A stretch of 64,000 bases of DNA from Eublepharis macularius (taxonomy: Eukaryota > Chordata > Lepidosauria > Squamata > Eublepharidae). Position numbers and translations under genes: made by a program. Shown here in pieces: positions 10,416 to 53,200 of this stretch (within the stretch, counting starts at the first letter, position 1; every line of letters begins with the position of its first letter). The notes under the pieces are model-generated. The model searched no databases. It had not been told where the DNA came from and was given only the letters and a program-made list of their open reading frames with translations. Where the stretch lies: the NCBI RefSeq assembly GCF_028583425.1, contig NC_072795.1, positions 66,540,001 to 66,604,000 of the forward strand, written 5' to 3'.

Positions 10416-10503
10416 CAGTGCAATCCTAAACAGAGTTACACTCGTCTAGGTCCACTGAAATCAATAGGCTTAGACTGGTGTAACTCTGCTTAGGATTGCA
10501 CTG
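10416..10503. repeat. ~88-bp near-palindromic element, copy 2
   Basis: The arms CAGTGCAATCCTAAACAGAG and CTCTGCTTAGGATTGCACTG are near-exact inverted copies around TCCACTGAAATCAATAGG. It can fold into one long hairpin. Confidence 0.85.
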
Positions 10504-13824: not shown

Positions 13825-16800
13825 CTGCAAAATGAAGGACAAACAAGAAAATATTTACCACTCAATCTTGAAAGCCTATCACTAGCATAATTCTAACTAA
13901 AGTGACACCCAGAAACTGTATAGAAGGTGCGAATTTTGAGCATTAGAGCTCTGGATATTTAGTGCGAAGAAAGAAAAAGGGGTTATGATTATAGGGTACA
14001 AAAGGGGACCTGCAAGGATTTGAGGAGGGCATCTCATATCCCCTCCCCACCACGTTCTCTTTCCCTTCCTCCCCCCTATAGACTCTCCCCACTCTCCTGT
14101 TTCCTTCTTTCCTTCCCATCCATCTTTGTCTGCCCCACCCCATCTTCACCTTTCACCTTTCCCCTCTCCAGCAGCATCTCTCGTATGGCATAAATGCATG
14201 GTGGGGAACGTGGATGGACTTACTGGGGATACTTTACTTTCCCCTGTATTCCCTTCCCCAGGCTATTTCCTCTTTTCCTCTTCCTGGCAGCCTCCATATG
14301 CTCACTTTTCCTTATATCCTCCTTCACATCCACTAAATAACTTACTTTTATCTGCCCCCCATCTTCAACTATATTTATTAATTTTCTTAATTTATATAGT
14401 GCCTTTTTCCACAATGGTGACCCAAAGCAGCTTACCTCATTCTCCTTACCACTGTATTATCCTCACAACAACCCTGAGAGGTAGGTTAGGCCAAGAGTGA
14501 TGCATCAAAGTCACCCAGTAAGCTTCTACAGCACAGTGGTGATTTGAACCTGGGTCTCCCAGATCCTACTCTAAAATTCTAACCACTACACTACACTGGC
14601 TTGGAGGGGGGTGTTGCTGTTGAATAGTAACAAGCAGCCAGGCCCGGGTGAGTCATGCAAGTCATGTGCTATCAAGTCACCCAGTAGTTGCTTCTGGGAT
14701 TGGTCCCAATGAGTCCTCCCTCAAAGGCTGTAACAGCCGTGGAAAGAGCCCTGCCCTCTTTTCCTGCCTTTTACTGACAGAAAGCAAGCCTGGAATACTA
14801 GTTGACCTGTCATGGGCATCTTATTAAAGCTACAGGTGCTCCTTTTATTATTTTGGGGTTTTTTAAACCCCCAATGTATTTTTTTTTAAGATTTCAGATT
14901 TTTCTGCAAACCAGTGGCATTTTTCAGGTGTAGGAAGATCTGTCTTGTCCATTCATGGCCCCAGTCTCTAGATTTAAGTATCCTCAGATAAAGGCCACTT
15001 GGTCATTAAGATGATCTGGTCAATAAGATGATCTGAAAGCTTACTGTAGACCAGAGATCCTTTAAAGATCCCCATCCAACATCTTCCTTACCAGAAAATA
15101 TCAACAAAACTCTTATTCTAAATGCAGAACTGTGAGATTTGCCTGCTGCCACCATTACTGCCACACAATCACCAGGTTAGATCCATCCTCTTCACACAGC
15201 CTTTAATAATAATTATCTTTTAGGGTTTGGGATTTTTTAAAATACTGCAGGTTTTTTAAATGCACCCAGCTGACTGACGTATTTTCAAATATAGTAAACA
15301 AGTCTAGTATGAAGATTACATAATGGAAAATACACATTTTAAAATAAAAAATATAGCCATGAAAATTGATTTACAGTGCAATCCTAAGAACAGTTACTCC
15401 ATTCTAAGCCCATTGATTTCAATGGGCTTAGACTGGAGTAACTCAGTTTAGGATTGCACTGATATTAAAGTTCTTATTTTTTTCTCATTTGGTAACACAA
15501 TCTTATAGTAAAACTGGAGTAAAATGGGAGATATCTGCAAACCTTAATCATATAAGATTATTCCCTGTCTTCATAAAAGTAAAACAGCATCAGTATTGTG
15601 TAGTGGTTAGACTGACAGGTTATGATGGGGGAAGCCTATTTCCAAAACCACATACAGCCATGAAAGCTCATCTGAGTGACATTGGGCCAGCCATTTTTTC
15701 TCAGCCCAACCTACCTCACAGGGTTGTTGTGAGGATAAAATGAAGGAGGGACATTGCCTTGCACTCCTTTGAAGAATGGCATGATAAAAATGTGAAAGAT
15801 ACAGAATAAATTATACACAAAAACAAAAATAAACAAATGTTTTACTTGGATAGTTTTAGAGAATACAGCTTTTCTTGGTGCAGTATTTGGGTTACCTTTG
15901 GATTTTTTAAAAAAAATTGCACAAAGTACTCACAGTCCTGGATGAAGCTCTTTTATGGAAATAATGTCAGATAAGGAATAAAGCAAACTTTCAAGCTTCA
16001 CGGAGCTCTGAAAAGGATGAGCCCCATTCCAAGCTGAACCCACAGCCATTAATTACTTGTACCTATTCTGTAACTGAGAACTGGCTGAAAACCTGAAATT
16101 CCATTCAGCTCCATGTCATCCTGTCCACAAACCAGTTAGAATCAGTCACTGTGAAACTGAAGCCATAGCCAAGGCAAGATGGCTTGGGAAATGCATCCTA
16201 GATGTCATTTTTGCTATAGAAAATATATTTCTAGTAAACCATCCTCAACCAACACCTACTTGAAAGCTTCAGAGAACATAACATGCTAAGGCACGCGGCA
16301 GGAGTGCTCACCTTTTCTGTGGGAAGAGTGCACAGCAAAGGGGCGTAGCAAACACCAAGCTGCAAAAGGAGAGAGAAAAACAGGTGAGTCAGTTTCTAGT
16401 TGCTATTTCTAACTTAGGAGGTTTCTGAATTTCTGGGGAACATGAGGCTTATCCGCCCTAGGAGGACAAAGCCCACTTTATGTGAGCCACCATGTTTTCA
16501 AGTACATTGAAGGCTGGTTTCTAGTGCATGATGGGTAGGAATGCATCATGGATATGGGCATTTTGTATCCTGATCAAGTTTTCTTTCTAGTCCAAAATGC
16601 GTTTTCAAGCTCTTCCTCTCCTGTGCTGGAGGACTGAAGTAATCACATTTTTAAAGGAGAGAGTTGAAAAGCCCCATGTCAGCAAAATTACTGCTATTTC
16701 AGATAGGTTGGTACATCATTCAATTGTAAATAGAATGGATCTTGGGGTTGTCACACCAATTTTAAAATGTGGCTCGGGTCCACTTTGGCAGATGATGCAA

Positions 16801-26636: not shown

Positions 26637-26713
26637 CAGTGCAATCCTATACAGAGTTACTCCTGTCTAAGCCCATTGAAATCAATGGAGTAATTCTGCA
26701 TAGGATTGCACTG
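26637..26713. repeat. ~88-bp near-palindromic element, copy 4
   Basis: CAGTGCAATCCTATACAGAG and CTGCATAGGATTGCACTG are the inverted arms around AAGCCCATTGAAATCAATGG. It lies in SFXN3 intron 1. Confidence 0.85.
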
Positions 26714-31075: not shown

Positions 31076-31185
31076 ATCCACACTAACTTAAGTCAAACTT
31101 CTTGCTAATTTCCCCTTAAAATAGCAGTTCTGGTAACATGCTCCAGCCTTTCAAACATCTCATGCCTACTGACAAACTTGATTAA

Positions 31186-31272
31186 CAGTGCATTCCAAAG
31201 CAGAGTTACTCCAGTCTAAGCCCATTGGTTTCAATGGGCTTAGACTAGAGTAACTCTGTTTAGGATTGCACA
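31186..31272. repeat. ~88-bp near-palindromic element, copy 5
   Basis: CAGTGCATTCCAAAGCAGAG and CTCTGTTTAGGATTGCAC are the arms around CTAAGCCCATTGGTTTCAAT. It lies in SFXN3 intron 1. Confidence 0.85.
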
Positions 31273-31924
31273 CTTAGAGCTGCAAGAATAGTGAAGAATG
31301 AACTGATGCATCAATATCAGATGGAAGGGCAAAAATGTGATAAACTGCTATTGCAGAGAGGGAGTGGGACAGCTCTCCTTATAGTTGAATCTGTAAAACA
31401 CTGAAGGAAAATTACTGATCTGAAGGATGTCAGAAGAAAAGTTTTAATCTGTCAAATCTCCTCGCTGAGAAGAATCAGAGAAAGACAAGATGAGACCAAA
31501 TACAAACACCACAGATTTTATCCCTGGCAAGATTAGGAGGCAGAATCAGGAAGAGGCCTTAGCCTCTATGCCCCTTTTTCCTGCCCCTTCAGTGGAACTG
31601 GTTGGCCCCTGTGTGAAACAGGATTACTTGGATTCTTTGAAGGGTTCTTCTTACGTTCTTATGTGCCTTAGAATACAACTGAAGAAAAACACCAGCCATC
31701 CTAGTGTCCGTGGTGTCAATGACAATTTTTGAATTGGGCAAGACTGAACTAAGCTGTTAGCAATAAACCAAATGATGTATGAATCTGCCAAGCATCAGTA
31801 TATTTGCCATCCAATTGCAATCCAAAAAAACTGAGCTGTTCATAGGAAGTATTGTCAAAGGCTTTCACGGCCGGAGAACGATGGCTGTTGTGGGTTTTCC
31901 GGGCTGTATTGCCGTGGTCTTAGC

Positions 31925-31978
31925 ATTGTAGTTCCTGACGTTTCGCCAGCAGCTGTGGCTGGCATCTTCAGAGGTGTA
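31925..31978 (-). ncRNA. hammerhead-ribozyme-like fold, Penelope tail, left arm
   Basis: This is the reverse-strand counterpart of the right-arm fold: CTGAAGA at 31971-31965, GCCAGC/GCTGGC stem, GAAAC at 31944-31940 and GTC at 31939-31937, with the same extra U. Confidence 0.55.
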
Positions 31979-32395
31979 GCACCAAAAGACAGAGATCTCT
32001 CAGTGTCACAGTGTGGAAAAGATGTAGGTCATTTGTATCTACTCAGGAGGGGTGGGGTTGAGCTGAGTCATCCTGTAAGAGTTTCCCAGGGTGTGGAATG
32101 CTAATGGCGGGAGGCTTCACTGTATCCTGAGGAGGTTCTTTTGCATATGGATTGGTACTTGATGTGCTAATCTTCTCTGCAGGGCTATTGTCGGGGATAG
32201 AATGTTTTGTTAGCCTGGTGTTTTTCAGAACTGGAAACCATGCTCTGTTCATTCTTGAGGTTTCTTCTTTCCTGTTGAAGTTTTGCTTATGCTTGTGAAT
32301 TTCAATGGCTTCCCTGTGCAGTCTGACAAAGTAGTTGGAAGTGTTGTCCAGTATTTTGGTGTCCTGGAATAAGATACTGTGCCCTGTTAGGCTCA

Positions 32396-33001
32396 CTACC
32401 GATCAGTGTGAGTTGGTTTCCTGTAGACCTTGTGACCTAACTGAAAGTTTGCTTTGCGGATGACCAAGGTATCCAGGAATGGGAGTTTTCCCTCGATTTC
32501 TTTCTCCATTGTGAATTGTATGTTCAGGTGGATGTTGTTGAGATGATTCAAAAACCCCATCAATTCTTCCTCCCCATGGCTCCAAATGATAAATGTATCA
32601 TCCACAAACCGGAACCATACACTAGGTTTGTGGGGTGCTGATTCTAGAGCTGTTTTTTCAAAATGTTCCATGTAGAAGTTTGCTATAACTGGGCTGAGTG
32701 GGCTCCCCATGGCCACCCCATCCATCTGTTCATAGAATTCGTTGTCCCATTGGAAGTAACTGGTTGTCAGACAATGGTGGAATAAGGCTGTTACATCCTC
32801 TGGGAAAATCTGATTAATAAGTGCAATAGTGTCTTTTACTGGAACCTTGGTAAACAGGGATACAACATCAAAACTGACAAGTATGTCTTGTGGATTGAGT
32901 TTCAGAGAACTGATTTTGTTGATGAAATCTGCTGAATCTTTGATGTAAGACGAGGTTTTCCCGATGTGGTCCTGCAGGAGGTCTACAGGAAACCAACTCA
33001 C
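32396..33001 (-). pseudogene. Penelope-like RT fragment (left arm)
   Basis: The open 201-codon frame carries RT motifs DVVSLFTKVPV, MDGVAMGSPLSPVIANFY and RFVDDTFIIWSHGEEEL, the last with the FVDD catalytic box. It ends just after VYRKPTHTDR, where the arm jumps to the tail. The N-terminal part of the RT is absent. Confidence 0.88.
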
Positions 33002-33874
33002 ACTGATCGGTACTTACACAAAAACTCCAATCACCATCCCCGACAGAAAAGAGGCATAATGAAAACATTAGTGGATCGTGCAAGACGGATATGTGAGCCG
33101 CACTTTCTCAATGAGGAAATTAATCATCTAAACCACGCACTTCAGGCAAATGGCTACTCCAGAAATGAAATCCGAAGAGCAATCAAACCCAGGATGAATC
33201 AAACAACCAAGGAAAAACAGTCTCCTACAGGAAAAGTGTTTTTGCCATATATCAAAGGAATTACTGATCAGATGGGAAAGCTTATGAAAAAGCATAACCT
33301 TCAAGCAGTATTCAGACCCACCCGAAAAATACAACAGATGCTACGATCAGCAAAAGACAGTAGAGACCCCCTCACCTCTGCAGGAGTATACCGTATACCC
33401 TGCAGCTGTGGACAAGTTTACATCGGGACCACAAAACGTAGCATCCAGACAAGAATAAAAGAACATGAAAGACACTGCAGACTTGGACAACCTGAAAAAG
33501 CAGCAGTGGCTGAACATAGCCTAACTCAAACAGGGCACAGTATCTTATTCCAGGACACCAAAATACTGGACAACACTTCCAACTACTTTGTCAGACAGCA
33601 CAGGGAAGCCATTGAAATTCACAAGCATGAGCAAAACTTCAACAGGAAAGAAGAAACCTTAAGAATGAACAGAGCATGGTTTCCAGTTCTGAAAAACACC
33701 AGGCTAACAAAACATTCTATCCCCGACAATAGCCCTGCAGAGAAGATTAGCACATCAAGTACCAATCCATATGCAAAAGAACCTCCTCAGGATACAGTGA
33801 AGCCTCCCGCCATTAGCATTCCACACCCTGGGAAACTCTTACAGGATGACTCAGCTCAACCCCACCCCTCCTGA
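32981..33874 (+). pseudogene. Penelope-like GIY-YIG endonuclease fragment (right arm)
   Basis: From VYRKPTHTDRYLHKN to the stop at 33874 the frame is open for almost 300 codons. The GIY-YIG pair is GVY...VYIG near residues 141-154 of that frame, followed by TKRSIQTRIKEHERHC. It begins at the arm junction, so it has no own start or RT. Confidence 0.88.
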
Positions 33875-33939
33875 GTAGATACAAATGACCTACATCTTTT
33901 CCACACTGTGACACTGAGAGATCTCTGTCTTTTGGTGCT

Positions 33940-33993
33940 ACACCTCTGAAGATGCCAGCCACAGCTGCTGGCGAAACGTCAGGAACTACAATG
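33940..33993 (+). ncRNA. hammerhead-ribozyme-like fold, Penelope tail, right arm
   Basis: CTGAAGA (33946-33952) fits the CUGANGA core. GCCAGC (33954-33959) pairs perfectly with GCTGGC (33967-33972), then GAAAC (33973-33977) and GTC (33978-33980). Flanking CCT and AGG can close a short stem I. One extra U separates the core from stem II, so activity is uncertain. Penelope-like elements are known to carry hammerhead motifs. Confidence 0.55.
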
Positions 33994-34049
33994 CTAAGAC
34001 CATGGCAATACAGCCCGGAAAACCCACAACAGCCATGTTCATAGGAAGT

Positions 34050-39929: not shown

Positions 39930-40708
39930 ACAAAGGACTCAGGGGGGAAAAGTGGATCTTTTCCTCTCAGGATTTTCCTGTAATGCTGGCTGAGCTTCAG
40001 TGTGCTTTGTGGCAAAAACTATAGGCCAGTTACACATTGATTGAGGGTGCCTGGTGTGGGATGCTGAGGAGAGTATAGCCATCTGTCTGGTGTACCAATT
40101 GCCCAGCACACCAGCAGATGCTGTGCTTGGCCTGTTGGAGGCGGTGGCTGGCTGGGCCTTGGAGTGCCCCAGGCTTCTGGTCTTGGGGGACTTCAGTGTC
40201 CATGCTGATGATGCTACCTCCTCACGGGCCATGGACCTGAGAGCCTCCATGGCGACATTAGGACTTTCCCAGTTTGTATTGACGCCTACACATCGAGCAG
40301 GACACACGCTGGATTTGATCTTTGGGGTGGTGATACAGGTGGATCTGGATGAACCTATAGCAGTTCCATGGTCAGACCACCTCGTTCTGAGGGCTTGTCT
40401 GGGCACCATGACCCTCCCCCTGTTTGGGCAACGAGCTGATTTATGCTCGCCCGCAGAGTCAAATGGATCCAATTGAATTCCAGAATGCTCTGCGGGATCC
40501 GATGCCCCCTGGTGGCTCATTGGATGAGCTGATAGGGGACTGGAATGCCAGTCTCTCTGAAGCTATCAACGAGATCGCTCCCCGTTGCCCTCTCTGCCCC
40601 AAACCAGAGTAGCTCCTTGCTATACTGATGAGCTATGACAAATGAAACAGGAGCTGAGACGGCTAGAGCGAGTGTGGCGGCGACTCCGTGACGAAGTGAC
40701 AAGAACAT

Positions 40709-41473
40709 TGTTATGACCTTTACTTTCTTTTGAGTAGATTTTTCTTTTAATCTTCCCCTTAACACCCTCTGGGTAGTTTGCTGCCACCAGGAATATTATA
40801 TTCCAATATATTTTATTTAAGTTTCCCTTCGGTAACGTTCCTAAGCGTCAGGCTCCTTCGTGGTTCTATGTGGCCCTGAGGACAGGAATGGGATAAAGCA
40901 ATGACAGCTACTCTGGGATATAACAAAACAAAACAAACTTTTATTTAGTCAAGAAGCGTAGTTATTTAGTTCATAAACGTAGTTCTTGGTTCTTAAAGTT
41001 ACTTCCTATAAACTCATTCACACAGATCTCTTCTAAGGCTTCACACACAGTTAGCCTCTTTCTCTAACTCAATATTTCTCTCACAGAAATGCTTAAACTC
41101 CTCAGGCAGCACACAGCCAGCCTCTCTTTCTCTGACTCTCATTCACAGAAATATGAAACCTGCTCAGGCAGCACACAGCTGGCCTCTCTTTCCCTGACTG
41201 AGTGTCCTTTCACAAACATGCTCAGTTCAGGTTCCACACAGGTTATATTTCTCTCATAAATATTTCAATATACTCAGGCAGCACACAGCTAGCCTGCTTT
41301 CTTCTGACTGAATATTTTCTCTCTGTGCTCACAGTCTAAACTGGATTCACTCCGCCCACACTCTGTCATCAACCAATCATATTGCTCACTCATCCCTCTC
41401 TTTCACCCCCATTCTCCACCTATCTCACCAAGCATTTAAAGATACATGCACACATTTACTTGAAATCATTACA
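40709..41473. mobile_element. solo LTR inserted in the L2 LINE
   Basis: A 765-bp block interrupts the LINE between its endonuclease and RT parts. It begins TGTTATGACC and ends TCATTACA, with short imperfect terminal inverted repeats of TG...CA type. A 5-bp target duplication AACAT flanks it (40704-40708 and 41474-41478). No internal coding region is present, as expected for an LTR left after recombination. Family not determined. It is younger than the LINE that it interrupts. Confidence 0.82.
40930..41330. repeat. degenerate ~60-110-bp repeats inside the solo LTR
   Basis: The phrase CTCAGGCAGCACACAGC followed by AGCCT or GGCCT and a CTCTTTCTCTGACT-like run recurs near 41101, 41163 and 41273, with a weaker unit near 41038. 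Confidence 0.65.
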
Positions 41474-43560
41474 AACATAGGATGTTTATGAAGGCCTATG
41501 AGATGGCAGTGAAAGCTGCAAAGAGAGACTACTATGCAGCTTCCATTGCGTCCGCTAGTTCTCGCCCAGCACAACTTTCCAGAGTGATTCGGTCTTTAAC
41601 GTCCCTCACACATGGGACAAGTAAAAGTGTAAATTCGGTAATAAGCTGTGAGGCTTTTGGAGACTATTTTGCAGGTAAGATCTTGTCACTCCGCCGGGAT
41701 CTGTCCAGTATGTGTACTGGAGGCCCCTTGGTCATCCTCAGGGTTGATATTAGATCAATTCAGGCCACTCTCCCAGGAGGAGGTAGGCAGGGTCCTGAAT
41801 GCTGTGAAACCTACCACATGCCCACTGGACCCGTGCCCATCATGGCTGGTGAAAACTGGCGGTGATGGGATTCAGGCACTATTAGCTGACATCATTAATC
41901 TTTCTCTGAGTTCTGTTTTTTTTCCAGACTCACTAAAGGAGGCAGTGGTGCAGCCCTTATTAAAGAAACCATCACTGGATCCTGTTGATCCAGCCAATTA
42001 CCGCCCAGTTTCGAATCTTCCATTCCTGGGTAAGGTAATTGAGAGGGCAGTAGCAGAACAGCTGCAGGTATACCTGGATGATGCCTCTATCCTGGATCCA
42101 TTCTAGTCCGGCTTCAGGCCTGGCCATGGTAGAGACGGCTCTGGTCGCCCTCACAGATGATCTGCGGTGACACCTGGACCGGGGCGGGTCGGCACTGCTG
42201 ATACTTTTAGATCTTACAGCAGCGTTCGACATGGTCGATCATAATCTTCTGACCCACCACCTTGCCGATGTGGGGATTCATGGAACAGCCCTGCAATGGC
42301 TGAACTCCTTCCTTCGCAATCGGGGACAGAGGGTGGCACTCGGGGAACAGATGTCTGCTTGCCATTCTTTGGTATGCGGCGTCCCTCAGGGGGCGATTCT
42401 TTCCCTGATGCTATTTAACATCTATATGCGCCCCCTCACCCGGTTAGCCCGCAGCTTTGGGCTGGGTTGTCACCAGTATGTGGATGACACTCAGCTCTAT
42501 CTGCTGATGGACAGCCAGTCTGGTCTTGCTCTGGAATCCTTGGCCAAGGGTCTTGAGGCTCTGATGGTATGGTTACATCAGAGTCGCCTGAAATTGAATC
42601 CCATGAAGACGGAGGTTCTGTGTCTTGGTCGTGGGGCAATCGAGCTGGGGACCCGGCTCCCAGCCCTCGACGGTACAGCTGAAACCTTCGCAGATGGTGA
42701 GGAGCCTGGGTGTGACCTTGGATGCCACACTTTCAATGGAGGCCCAGGTCACAACCGTTGCCAGGTCTGCCTTTTTTCATCTTCGACAGGCCAGGCAACT
42801 GGCACCCTATCTTTCACTCCGGGACCTGGCCACAGTAATCCATGCAACGGTCACCTCCAGGCTAGACTACTGCAACTCACTCTACGCTGGGCTGCCCTTG
42901 GGCCTGACCCGGAAGTTACAGCTGGTCGAGAATGCAGCAGCACGCATCCTTACCGGAACGCCAATCTGAGCACACATTCATCCTGTGCTGTGCCAGCTGC
43001 ACTGGCTCCCAGTGGAGTTCTGGATCTGGTTCAAGGTGTTAACCTTGGTGTTTAAAGCCCTTCATGGACTGGGACCTACATACCTGCAGGACCACCTCTT
43101 CCATTATGTCCCCTGCAGGGTGTTGCACTCTGCAGACAAGCAACTCCTGGTGGTCCCCGGCCCAATCCATCTGGCCTCAACCAGGGCCAGGGCTTTTAAT
43201 GCCCTGGCCCCAGCCTGGTGGAACGCTCTCCTGCTGGAGATCTGGGCCCTGTGGGACCTGTTACAGTTTCGCAGGTCCTGTAAAACGGGGATGTTCTGCC
43301 AGGCCTTTGGCTGAGTGCCAGCGGGTGTCCTCCTTCTTCCATCTAAGACCACCACTTCTTCTGGGGCTGCCCTCAGCCAACTGCTATGCCCATATATGGA
43401 CTCCCAATATTTGTTTAAATAGCCTGCTCCTGGACTATTTTAATGACTTATAAAAAATTATTGATTTTACGTTTTTGTGACTTTTAATGTATTTTTGGAA
43501 TGTTGTTAGCCACCCTGAGCCCTGTGGGGAGGGTGGGGTATAAATTAAATCAAATAAATA

Positions 43561-47200: not shown

Positions 47201-50200
47201 TGATATGCTTGATCTGTACATTATGAAGAGACCCACCTACTTTCTGCTGGAACTACTCATTGTCTTTTGCACTCACCATACATTTGTTCTTTGCTTCCTC
47301 TCCCTGGTCAACTCCCCCACCCTATAACGTTCTTCCACTGAGTTTCCTTCTCCATTTAAGCTTTCCATTTTCCACTTTAGCTATCCTTCCCTCGATGGTC
47401 ACCATGCCTTCTTCTATGTACATTCTATTCTTCTATGTACATTCTGTCACATACTGAAGGCCTTCTGTCCTTCAAAAATGGGTGGTATGAAAACCACCAT
47501 TCCTCCAGCTTTGCAGTTGCCATGTAGTCACTCATCCCAAACCAGCCATTTTGAAGTGCATATATCTATGATAAGGAACCTTGCCTCGCTGGTGAAATTG
47601 TATGCTACCTCTAAAGCTGGTAGGATTGGATGGATGTCTACTTGGTTAAAAGTAAGGGAGTCATGCTACTTGGTTTGTCCTGCTAATATTTAGCATTTTC
47701 TCTATGCTATTCCTGCAGGTGACCCCCACACTAACAGCTGTGTCTGTGCCACCAGTCTTTGTCACATCTTTTCAGAAGGTGCTGCATACCTGCATCCATT
47801 CAATATTGAGTTCAGCCTCTTTTCTTCTACAATGTTGTACATCATCTGGAAGAACACTGGACGGGAAGCCCATCAACAGAAGCCCTCACTCACTCAGAGG
47901 GCACACTTCCATCTCAGTGGAGCTTTTGTTGGCCTCGTGCTAGGGGCCTTGGCCATTTCAGCAACCTTTGGCGTGATGATCTCTTTTGGAGTGCTTGCTA
48001 AGTCTCCCAAAACTATCCCAGAAGCTCTTCGGACATACTACATCTTCAATTCTGTGTTGTTATCTGCAATGTTCTTGGCAACTTTGATAGGCATCATCAC
48101 CTACAGGGTGAAAAAAAAGGCTACAGCACCCTCTTCTGATAAGAGTGTGGTAAGAAACTTAGACGTAACTTTGCTTCTGGGCAGCTCCTGCGGTCCCCTC
48201 ATGGTATCCATTTTCTCTTTGGTTGCCATCTTCTTCCTTCATGCCAATGGCAGCCTCCATCTCCTGGACTTTTGCTTCTCTCTTTGCAAGACCATCCAGA
48301 TCCTGGGGCAGAATCTCTTCATTACTGAAGCTTTGTATTCTAGCCTCTCTCATGAGCCAGATGCCCAAGACAATAGTGAGGCTGATGGTACCAGCTGGGT
48401 TTTTTCCATTTCTAGAGGTCACATGGAGCAGTACAGCAACGGACCTTTCTCCAAAACCAACACACTGACCAACATCATGGCCAATTTGGAGCATCAGTCA
48501 CCACAGCACTTGACAGACTATGGTACTGACCCATCCCTCTTCCAGATCTCACACATGCAGCGTCAGTCAAAGAGACCAAGCATTAGGAGGAAGGTTCTAC
48601 AGAACATCTCTATTCTCCTTATCTTCTACAATATCTCGGTGAGCTGAGTCAGGCTCAAGGAAGATTGAGAGATGCTGCTAGGGTTCAAACATAACTTTTC
48701 TGGAACCAGTAGAAACTTGTAACATGGGTTCCCCCATTCCTGATCCCATCACATACATACAATCTTGAGCCATAAAAGAAATAGCATTCTGAAATATTGT
48801 CAGTATATACAGGCAGGTGACTTAGAGCCAGCCCAGACTCTACTGGAGCCCAGAAAGCATACGTGTTTTTCCATGCCTGGCTTTTGTGTGCTGCCAAAAT
48901 CTCAGAAAAGAAGATGCCACTTCTGTGGATATAGAGAAGGAAGGTCTTGTTGGGATCTAGAAATGGTCCTTAAAATAACCATCCTTCCCTTTCCTGACAT
49001 TGGGCCTCACTAGACCGGGACTGAGGTTTGGTATGGCTGGTGTGTAAAATATATTTAAAAATGTGGAAGATCAATGCAGTGTTCACTTATGGTTCCAGTT
49101 AGAATGTCCATACGTGAGCCAAGGGTGGAGGAAGTCATAAGAATCCATTTAAATACAAAATGGCAGGGACAGACAGGGAGCTCTTTTGTTTGATTTTGTT
49201 GCAATGCTTTGAAACAATCATGCCCTCTGCCCCAAAATGTTCCTTTGCTCTGTATTTAGGCCTAGTCCTTTATTGGATTTTGGAATTTTTGTTAAAAAAA
49301 TAAACGTTGGTAGTGGGGGGGTAGAAGGCAGGAAGTAGAGCATAGGTATTCATTGTGCAATTCAGTTTCATTTATAAATATGTTTTATAAAGAAAAAACA
49401 TTCTAGACATTCTTAAGCCAAGAATTTAAAGCAACACTTCAGTCCTTCACATGATGACATGATTTGCCAGGCAGACTGGAAAAAGAGCTTTCCCTGAGAC
49501 AGTTGAAACTAGAAGCAGCAACAAAAATAGAAGCACGTCCTTGGCTAGAAAATGAAAAAGGCAGATTTTAAAGACTGCATTCCTATATAGGCTTCCTTAG
49601 GAAGAAGTCCAGTTAAGACTTACTTCTGAATAACTCTGAAAAGAGTTGGGCTGCCTAGTCTCTTTTTCTTTCTCTAATGGTGTATTTCATATACTCCTGA
49701 GTGCCAGTTGTAGTGGACAGTAACAGGACAGAAATTCAATGAAACATTTAATACCTACACATGTCAAAACTGCATGTCTTAGATGATGGAAAAGCCCAGC
49801 AAGGCATGGTTAGAATATGTTTGGCATTACAGCTAAGTGTGGGGCTTTGACTGGGGAACTCTCAAACTGATGGGTAATAGGCAAAAATTCAACAGGTATG
49901 GTCTCTCAGGGCAATGCAAAAAAGCTCACAATGCAAAAAAGCTTACCTGTTGGTCGTGCTGCCTTTGAAAAATATGACGTATTTGAAAAAAATGTTTCTG
50001 CATAGCTTTTCTGTTCACAGGAAAGATGATTTGAAATCGCTACAACAAAGGGGAGTCTGCAACTCCCATGCCTTTAAAATCTGGCATATAGGAATGTTAG
50101 GATGTGAGAGGCTCTAAGTGACCAGTAGAGGGTGGAAGCGAATCAGCAAAAAGGAGAGCCCACTTTTAAAATAATTACCATATTTAGCTTTTGGCATTAA

Positions 50201-53200
50201 CCTAATAAAATACATCTTTAACCAATGATGCTTTCAAGGGGCAAGATGAATTTTAACATAATCAAATGCTTTTCTCTGGATTCTTACTAGTTATATGTTT
50301 AGTTTACCTTTGATCTCCTTTGCACGCTGGCTCAGGAAATGCCACAACGACACAGCCAACCAGCAGTTCCTGTGCAGTCCAGCCCTAAACTCATTCACTA
50401 AAACCGAGCCCTAACCCCCCTCCCCCCGCCCCATGTATAGTGTTCCTAAAGAACAGATGAACAGGTGAACTATTGCTGGACTGTGTTCTTCAGCCAGCAT
50501 ATGGGGGCTCACAAGATTGAATGCTCCTCCATACCAAACATTTCTTGCACACAGATGTCAGGATGAAAGCTATGCAAGAATTCCTTCTGTTTAACAACTA
50601 GCTTTCTTTGTGTGGGGAATTGTTTGTGTGGAGGATCATTCAGTCAAGTAAGTCCCCCCCCCTACACACACCATCTAAATTGGAACCATTAAGAATCAGG
50701 AAATTTACACACCTGCTGTTTGGGAGAGCTGTTCCTGAGTTAATGAGATTTAGCAGGTAGGATTCGGTTTCGTTTTCTCAGCCATGCCGGACGCTCCTCT
50801 CGGCTGGTCCGGGAGGAAACGACCGGGCACCCTGACCGGGCGGCTGATCCGCAAGGATTAGCCCCCAGGACTCCCAGGGAGGGAGCCAGGGTCCGGGACG
50901 CGGCGGGAAGAACTCCCCGAAATCAATGCGGGGGGGGAATTGCCCGTTTGTCCCTATGGAGGCCGGCAGATGTGCGCGGCGCCTCGAGTGCCGCCGGGCA
51001 ACAAGAAACGGCAAGTAAAAGAAACAGGCGGAAGCCTGTAAACAAGCGAATCCCTTCTGTTCTACAAGCGTTTGTGAAGGAGAGGTTGATCTGAAGAAGA
51101 CTCGCTCTTCCCCTTCGTGGAGTTCCAGAATTTTGTTGGCGCCCCCCCCCCCCCAAAATGGCAGCAAAGAAGCAAAGTCCCGCTCTCGGTAAGTCAATCT
51201 CGGCTACCTTGCAGAAAGGGGAGTCGCTCGAAGAGTTGGTGCGCAGGGCGGTGGTGGAAGCCATAAAACCCTTTGTTGACAAGCTGAACGAAACTGATCA
51301 AAGGGTGGGCTTAATTGAAAGCGAGGTGAAAACCATTAAGGCAGCAGCGGGGGGGGGGCAGAAAAGTCTGCTCTGGAAAGTGCGTCACTTGTGAAGGCTA
51401 CAAAAAAGGAGCTGAAGTTGGTGGAGAACCAGCTGATCGGGCTACAGGTGGAACGAACGCAGACAATTTTGCATCTCCAAAACGTGAAAGAGGAGGAAAA
51501 TGAGGATCTGTGGGATTTGGTCTCGGAACTACTGGCGACACCCGCGAGGACGACTAAAGAAGAGGTTAAAAGCGCCATTTTGGAGGTCCGTCGGGCTTCT
51601 TCAAAATATGCAACAAAGCGACAGTTGCCTCGTGAGATCATTATTGACTTTTCAACTAAAAAGATTCGGGACACCATCCTATATAACTCATACAATGCGG
51701 ATTTGGACTTTATGGGTTTGAAAGTCAAGATTTTGAAGGACGTTCCATTTCTAGTCCGGAAACGGCGTTTTAAATATAAAAAGTTTGCAGCTCTTCTGAG
51801 GGACCATGGAATAAAGTACAAATGGTTATTCCCGGAAGGAATATGGTTCAGATATAAAGATCAGGCCTATAAGATATTATCAGAAGATCAACTAAAGGAT
51901 TTTGAGAATAAAAACCCAGAACTCTGCTGCACCAAGAATGAAGAAAAGGAGGAGCCGGAGGGGGGGGAGGAGGAGGAGAGCATCGCAACAGCAGTTGCAC
52001 AGAGAGAATTGCGTCCGGGACCTAGAAGGGGGAGGAAAGTTTAATCAGAATTTGAAATGTTTATTTTCTGTATGATTAACCACTCCATCATTATTCTATG
52101 GAGCTATTTTTGTATTATGACAGTATGAAGGGAAACATTGAAGTGTAGTGTTTAGTGTTTGTAGTTCATTCCCCCCCCTTTTTCTTTTTCCACCCCCCTT
52201 TGTCCCTTCCCTCTCCCCTTTCCTTGTGATAGTCTGGTGTAGTGTTTTGTAGTTATGAAAAATAAAAAAATTTATAATAAAAAAAAAGAGATTTAGCAGG
52301 TAGACATAGATGCTCATTATACAATATTCTGGGCCATATTTTGCAACTCAAAGCAGATACAGAAAGAGGAGGAGTGTTGCAGCTGTGCTTGTTTCATAGA
52401 TAAAATGTATCACAGGAATTTCCAGGAGAACCTTGTTTAAAATGGTTAGACTGCGTGCATCATTAAAGATCCAAATTAATTATATGGTCAACCTGCAAAT
52501 TAAGAAACAGCAAATGAAATAACCTTCTTAGGACTGTGCAGAAGGAAGACTCACATAACTGAATTCTCACCCAGTTCTCAGTGCACTACCACTGCTGGAT
52601 TCCATCTGTGTGAAAGATGCTTAACTTGTTTTTCTCTGAGGTTTTTTTTGGGGGGGGGGGTTGTATAGAGGAGCATTCAGTTGTGTGACTTTGAAGTAGT
52701 GCAGGCTGACAGCAGCTGTAGCGTGTAGACAACAAAGAGCCAGTTCTTCCCTCTTACTTCCAAAGAGCTGAAAATACCCCCAAATGGGCCACTGCAGATC
52801 ATATCAGGAAAGGAGTTGCTAGAGGAGAGGAATTGGTGCACAAGCTCATACAGGAAGAGACAGTGCTTCAGACTAGTTTCAATTTGATCACAACACTATA
52901 ACATGTGAAGGGGAAAATGTATGTAGGATATGGTAGCCACACACCTTGGACCCTCAGGCAGCTTCACTTCGGGAGCTTGTACATAGCACATCTTTTCAGA
53001 TACACAGAACCCCCTCTAGATGTTATAGTGGTCACTTCTGATACGTACAGTGAACAGATTTTTTTCTGTAATCTGTGAAACAGCTCTGATATCAGTATTT
53101 GTGCAGATTATTTAAATTCTTGTTTTCCTCCCCTCCCTCTTTGTTTGGCTAGGTGTGGATCCTTTATGCCTATGGGACCCGCCCACACCTGGTGAGCCAA

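What the first reader, a model, noticed from the sequence alone, without database searches (positions are those of the whole stretch)
50761..52287. An ORF1-only, HAL1-like half-L1 retrotransposon in a squamate
The element has a CpG-rich 5' UTR, a near-intact L1 ORF1, a 3' UTR and an A-rich tail but no ORF2, and sits between perfect 16-bp target duplications. HAL1 elements of this design are known from mammals. A reptile counterpart would be an independent origin of an ORF1-carrying parasite of L1. The intact 5' end argues against simple 5' truncation. A single internally deleted copy remains possible.
Basis: partly seen in the sequence, partly recalled or inferred. Interest (0 to 1): 0.75.

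Follow-up and report, generated by a model that had tools for sequence, protein, structure and literature searches.

The report
ORF1-only L1 parasite family, vertebrate genome
This element is one copy of a large, young family of "half-L1" jumping genes that keep only the L1 RNA-binding protein and appear to borrow the copying enzyme from other L1s, a design described in mammals and here found in a genome that looks reptilian.

Summary
Observation confirmed. The 1,527-bp element lies between perfect 16-bp target duplications, carries an L1-type ORF1 and lacks ORF2. It is not a lone deleted copy: the host genome (2.24 Gb, unnamed) holds 1,570 matches to its ORF1-3'UTR junction (control 0), and a second subfamily, about 82% identical, adds 619. 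In 38 of 40 copies the target duplications are at least 12 nt and all different, at TT/AARA sites as expected of an L1 endonuclease. No copy examined has ORF2 between ORF1 and 3' UTR. The window copy's ORF1 is broken at a run of ten G, but 12 of 23 full-length copies in a sample not selected on that run keep it open (287-304 aa), and dN/dS between subfamilies is 0.16. So ORF1 was selected while the ORF1-only form spread: HAL1-like design and behaviour. A second, distinct ORF1-only family exists in the same genome. The parental or helper L1 was not found; other loci's ORF1s are 24-35% identical. 'Reptile' rests on genome and contig sizes judged from memory. The literature listings I saw show no reptile HAL1; Repbase and Bao & Jurka 2010 could not be read.

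The parts
50745..50760 (.). 5' target site duplication, 16 bp
   Evidence: identical to 52288-52303
50761..51158 (+). CpG-rich 5' UTR, probable internal Pol II promoter
   Evidence: 398 bp, CpG o/e 0.88; its first 34 nt match 2,457 places in the genome with up to 2 mismatches, control 0; promoter activity is inferred
51159..52044 (+). L1 ORF1, broken in this copy at the G run
   Evidence: matches to solved L1 ORF1p, E 3e-4; the 295-aa open copy in L089 matches with E 5e-4; two frames in this copy
51349..51358 (+). run of ten G that puts the reading frame out in this copy
   Evidence: run length varies among copies; the commonest length, 8, keeps the frame
52045..52287 (+). 3' UTR with pyrimidine-rich stretch, two AATAAA signals and A-rich tail
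   Evidence: same 3' UTR directly after ORF1 in the copies examined
52288..52303 (.). 3' target site duplication, 16 bp

Best explanation
The element is one copy of a young, high-copy, non-autonomous L1 derivative that encodes only ORF1p (HAL1-like). Shown: multi-copy family; fixed structure 5'UTR-ORF1-3'UTR-A tail; no ORF2 in the copies examined; L1-type insertion sites and target duplications; ORF1 open in 12 of 23 full-length copies of a sample not selected on the G run, and under purifying selection between two ORF1-only subfamilies. Inferred: the CpG-rich 5' UTR is an internal promoter; the RNA is polyadenylated and translated into ORF1p, which coats its own RNA in cis; ORF2p of an autonomous L1 in the same genome is recruited in trans and inserts the RNA by target-primed reverse transcription. 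This window copy is frame-broken and could not itself make full ORF1p.
For: 40 scored matches of 98-100%, window included, over nearly the whole element. Junction 34-mer 1,570 matches, control 0; subfamily-2 junction 619, control 0. 38 of 40 copies with target duplications of 12-24 nt, all distinct, nick consensus TT/AARA; 22 of 23 in a second, slightly overlapping sample. ORF1-only in 30 of 30 3'UTR loci (23 full length, 7 5'-truncated), in 31 of the 40 best 5'UTR hits with 9 undetermined, and in 8 of 8 subfamily-2 copies. Twelve of 23 full-length copies have ORF1 open for 287-304 aa. Subfamily 1 against 2: dN 0.083, dS 0.51, ratio 0.16 over 200 codons; 0.04 over 36 N-terminal codons; the other two frames of the main part 1.0 and 1.8. 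Private changes in 23 copies show no third-position excess (11, 11, 6 in the main part; 0, 6, 3 in the N-terminal part).
Against: No autonomous L1 with a similar ORF1, 5' UTR or 3' UTR was found; ORF1s of other loci are 24-35% identical and their flanks unlike. Eleven of 23 copies have a broken ORF1, so ORF1p supplied in trans, or none, may suffice for some. In the sample, where shared variants are counted in every copy, positions fall 38, 20, 48 in the main part and 10, 56, 6 in the N-terminal part, a mixed picture. dN/dS rests on one copy of each subfamily. No transcript or protein evidence.
Confidence: 0.88

Rival explanations
1. Recurrent spliced L1 transcripts (SpIRE-like): a full-length L1 is spliced from the end of ORF1 to its 3' UTR and each product inserts once; ORF1 selection then reflects the parent L1.
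For: Would give one junction, many target duplications and a selected ORF1. SpIREs are described in human (PMC5860796, abstract and section list seen). The parent of the deletion is not known.
Against: The unspliced parent should share the 5' UTR and ORF1: 31 of the 40 best 5'UTR hits are ORF1-only (window included), 9 undetermined, none seen with ORF2. The genome-wide numbers are close: ORF1 34-mer 2,457, junctions 1,570 + 619; they were not paired place by place, so this sets no strict bound.
Confidence: 0.05
2. ORF1 is a passenger: the family moves as an RNA only, like a SINE, and its ORF1 is a relic.
For: The window copy and 10 others of 23 full-length copies have a broken ORF1.
Against: dN/dS 0.16 between subfamilies that both lack ORF2, against no third-position excess in private changes; the commonest G-run length is the in-frame one in both subfamilies.
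Confidence: 0.06
3. One internally deleted L1 copy with no descendants.
Against: 1,570 matches to the junction, and distinct insertion sites in the 40 copies checked.
Confidence: 0.001
4. Programmed -1 frameshift at the G run makes full ORF1p from this copy (my own interim idea).
For: Ten G in 37 of 39 fetched best matches and seven G in one subfamily-2 copy keep the same frame offset.
Against: The best-match sample favours the query's own run length; in the 3'UTR sample the commonest length is 8 (10 of 23 typed runs), in frame, and 10 of 20 subfamily-2 copies have 8; 12 of 23 copies are open without any shift. No unusual downstream RNA structure (z -0.97, -0.31, 0.26).
Confidence: 0.01

Closest known systems
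HAL1 (half-L1) elements of mammals
   Same: Non-autonomous L1 derivative that encodes only ORF1p, with A tail and target duplications (PMC5753468 and PMC5322556, passages seen); long-kept ORF1 coding capacity as stated for guinea-pig HAL1 (PMC3627910, passage seen).
SpIREs (spliced integrated L1 elements)
   Same: Shortened L1 RNA reinserted by L1 machinery (PMC5860796, abstract).
   Different: The SpIREs of that abstract lose 5'UTR or 5'UTR/ORF1 sequence and are called generally evolutionary dead ends; here ORF2 is missing, and the short form is the one seen and has diverged into subfamilies.
ORF2-bearing L1s of the same genome
   Same: L1-type ORF1.
   Different: Endonuclease coding lies downstream of ORF1 in 10 of the 22 loci found by the Pfam ORF1 model; their ORF1s are 25-35% identical to ours.

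Membership tests
HAL1-type (ORF1-only L1 derivative) | encodes an L1-type ORF1p | tested here: met
   similar to other L1 ORF1s of the same genome, best E 7e-21. Pfam score is below its cut-off.
HAL1-type (ORF1-only L1 derivative) | lacks ORF2 | tested here: met
   3' UTR directly after ORF1 in 30 of 30 and 12 of 12 copies; no endonuclease coding in 38 loci, 37 places
HAL1-type (ORF1-only L1 derivative) | amplified family with A tail and target duplications | tested here: met
HAL1-type (ORF1-only L1 derivative) | ORF1 coding capacity maintained | tested here: met
   12 of 23 copies open; dN/dS 0.16 between subfamilies; the window copy itself is broken
HAL1-type (ORF1-only L1 derivative) | derived from an identifiable L1 of its host | tested here: inconclusive
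HAL1-type (ORF1-only L1 derivative) | mobilised in trans by L1 ORF2p | not testable with these tools
   TT/AARA sites and 12-24 nt duplications are consistent
Mammalian HAL1 lineages by descent | ORF1 nested among mammalian L1 ORF1s | not tested
   no mammalian HAL1 sequence was at hand and no tree was built
SpIRE | an unspliced parent shares 5' UTR and ORF1 | tested here: inconclusive
   none seen in 31 of the 40 best 5'UTR hits, 9 undetermined

The most novel reading that the evidence does not exclude
ORF1-only parasitism of L1 arose at least twice, from distinct L1 ORF1 lineages, in one non-mammalian genome, and one lineage has outlived any L1 with a similar ORF1: an ORF1p clade that persists and evolves under selection with no ORF2 of its own, living on the ORF2p of foreign L1s.
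Probability: 0.4. Interest if true: 0.75.

Novelty: new member of a known kind. Interest (0 to 1): 0.58.

Why it matters
HAL1s are described as having arisen several times in mammals (PMC5753468, passage). A young, selected ORF1-only family, and a second distinct one, in a genome that looks reptilian suggest that shedding ORF2 while keeping ORF1 is a repeatable outcome of L1 biology. It makes an open question testable outside mammals: what does ORF1p do in cis that makes it worth keeping when ORF2p comes from elsewhere? The family offers two divergent subfamilies, many full-length copies and a natural set of open and broken ORF1s.

Tried and rejected
Single-copy deletion: rejected by the genome search. 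Programmed frameshift at the G run: raised from the best-match sample, then dropped when I saw that this sample favours the query's own run length. Viral and prokaryote collections gave no relative. The second group of Pfam-found ORF1 loci was first taken for autonomous L1s; searches show another ORF1-only family. Literature: searches for reptile, lizard, gecko or ORF1-only half-L1 elements listed 8 of 8 papers, 25 of 26, 30 of 41, 4 of 4, 18 of 18, 15 of 626 and 40 of 334; I saw no title or abstract start about a reptile HAL1 in these listings. Searches looked for the host species and settled nothing. Bao & Jurka 2010 is not held, nor were two DOIs tried for lizard and vertebrate L1 papers. 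Repbase and Dfam cannot be searched here. Papers of which I saw passages: PMC5753468, PMC4161310, PMC5322556, PMC9099904, PMC10379679, PMC3183009, PMC3627910; abstract and section list: PMC5860796.

Full report
The element. At window 50761-52287 there is a 1,527-bp element between perfect 16-bp duplications. It has a 398-bp CpG-rich 5' UTR (CpG o/e 0.88; window 0.23), an L1-type ORF1 and a 243-bp 3' UTR and tail without CpG. The C-terminal 218 aa of ORF1 match solved L1 ORF1p structures (E 3e-4 and 7e-4); the Pfam L1 model is matched below its cut-off. This copy's frame is broken at a run of ten G (51349-51358): from the ATG it reads 78 aa.

It is a family. The host genome (window = G000:C6:66540001-66604000; 2.237 Gb, 72 contigs) gave 40 scored matches, window included, of 98-100% identity over nearly the whole element, from 2,290 candidates. 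The window copy and the 39 others, fetched with flanks, were checked: 38 of 40 have target duplications of 12-24 nt (median 17), all 38 different, and the nick consensus is TT/AARA; 0 of 200 mismatched flank pairs share 12 nt. The 34-nt ORF1-3'UTR junction matches 1,570 places with up to 2 mismatches, control 0.

No ORF2. A search with the 3' UTR alone gave 40 matches, of which 30 became loci: all 30 continue upstream into ORF1, 23 full length (window included) and 7 truncated at the 5' end. A search with the 5' UTR alone gave 40 matches: 12 stretches fetched at the expected place all carry the 3' UTR (12 of 12), and by coordinates 19 more, window included, have a known copy, 3' UTR match or exact junction at ORF1-only spacing; 9 are undetermined. 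Searched with the endonuclease of another L1 of this genome, the family's 38 loci (37 places; the window was held as L001 and L073) show no endonuclease coding, while 11 of 22 loci found by the Pfam ORF1 model do, in 10 of them downstream of ORF1 (in L053 it lies upstream).

A second subfamily. A relative on contig C11 (L061 and L100) shares the ORF1-3'UTR architecture at 81-83% nucleotide identity. Its 39 best non-self matches are 97-98% identical to it over the 5'UTR-ORF1 part aligned (3,818 candidates). Its junction matches 619 places, control 0. Eight of eight fetched copies have the 3' end directly after ORF1, one with an internally deleted 3' UTR.

Is ORF1 alive? The sample suggested that the copies share the frame break (ten G in 37 of the 39 fetched), but that sample was ranked by similarity to the query and so favours its run length. 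In the 3'UTR sample, whose query does not include the run, 12 of 23 full-length copies (window included) have ORF1 open for 287-304 aa, ending in three alternative frames because of a second G run. In the 30 loci 23 runs were typed, 21 of them in the full-length copies: 8 G in 10, 9 in 5, 10 in 3, 13 in 2, and 7, 11, 14 once each. Eight G keeps the frame. In subfamily 2 the lengths were 8 in 10, 9 in 6, 7 in 4 of 20. Between the window copy and the subfamily-2 copy, dN/dS is 0.16 over 200 codons and 0.04 over 36 N-terminal codons; the two other frames of the main part give 1.0 and 1.8. Changes private to single copies within the family fall 11, 11, 6 on the three codon positions in the main part and 0, 6, 3 in the N-terminal part, so the constraint seems to act on source elements and not on inserted copies. 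In the sample, where shared variants are counted in each copy, the tallies are 38, 20, 48 and 10, 56, 6. Caveat: one copy per subfamily was used for dN/dS.

Age. The 23 full-length copies differ from their majority by 0.37% on average in 5' UTR and ORF1 (0.08-2.0%); the sample was ranked by 3'UTR similarity and leans young. The 40 copies average 0.84% over the whole element.

Partner L1. Pfam Transposase_22 found 22 other ORF1 loci. In one search, 20 of the 22 match our ORF1 protein, at 24-35% identity; the 10 with endonuclease coding downstream are at 25-35%. None but the nested subfamily-2 copy in L061 has nucleotide similarity to our element. So the L1 that gave rise to this family, or that feeds it now, was not identified.

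A second ORF1-only family. Eleven of the 22 loci (L049, L051, L053-L056, L058, L060, L063, L068, L069) share a 1.65-kb element, about 883 to 2534 of L060. It has its own 5' end, an ORF1 26% identical to ours over 196 aa, about 460 bp of 3' UTR in L060 and an A tail, and target duplications of 12 nt or more in 10 of 11 (control 0 of 200). In one search (best 40 of 4,923 candidates) 32 of 39 non-self places align without a break from ORF1 to the same 3' end (query 1319-1349 of 1901); 7 stop earlier, four of them with a further piece reaching 1330-1336; none runs past 1349. Five of 11 copies have an ATG-started ORF of 300 aa or more; codon-position tallies there are 5, 6, 12 for shared and 32, 28, 46 for private changes, which decides little. 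A 34-nt 3'UTR tag of it has 15 matches, so the close group is small. The only nucleotide similarity to our family is 34 nt of the A/T-rich end (E 0.03). No tree was built, so independent origin is an inference from distance: our ORF1 is no closer to this family than to the ORF2-bearing L1s.

Mechanism. L1-type target sites, duplications and A tails point to target-primed reverse transcription by an L1 ORF2p supplied in trans. Since ORF1 is selected in elements without ORF2, ORF1p most likely acts on its own RNA. The same argument was made for guinea-pig HAL1, whose ORF1 coding is said to have lasted about 29-44 million years (PMC3627910, passage). Promoter activity, translation and trans-mobilisation are inferred.

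Comparison. HAL1 is described as a non-autonomous L1 derivative with ORF1p only that arose several times in mammals (PMC5753468, passage); nearly 2,100 copies are stated for human (PMC5322556, passage). This family meets the structural and coding features and is placed with HAL1-type elements by design; descent from mammalian HAL1s was not tested. In the listings of seven searches (some capped) I saw no reptile HAL1; this is weak evidence of novelty.

Noticed in passing
L060:883-2534 and L049, L051, L053-L056, L058, L063, L068, L069: A second, distinct ORF1-only L1-type family in the same genome, about 1.65 kb, target duplications of 12 nt or more in 10 of 11 copies.
   Followed up: partly
window 31876-34040: 513-bp inverted repeats, 99% identical, flank head-to-head ORFs: a reverse transcriptase on the minus strand (32396-33001, RVT_1) and an ORF with a weak T5orf172 match on the plus strand (32966-33874); looks like an inverted Penelope-like element (the Penelope label is from memory).
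   Followed up: no
window 40054-43055: Reverse transcriptase fragment (42231-43055, RVT_1) of another LINE, with a weak endonuclease-like match upstream at 40054-40476.
   Followed up: no
window 47832-48647: Otopetrin-like coding stretch.
   Followed up: no
window 10416-10503, 15362-15461, 26637-26713, 31174-31271: Dispersed, partly self-complementary repeats of about 90 bp.
   Followed up: no
G000:C1:4546330-4596654: Five exact matches to the ORF1 34-mer within about 50 kb on one contig: a local cluster of copies or a duplicated stretch.
   Followed up: no
L061:2198-3269: Subfamily-2 copy nested inside an ORF2-bearing L1 and with part of its 5' UTR tandemly duplicated.
   Followed up: no
window 51961-51968 and the same place in other copies: A second G run near the end of ORF1 varies in length between copies and gives three alternative C-terminal frames.
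   Followed up: partly
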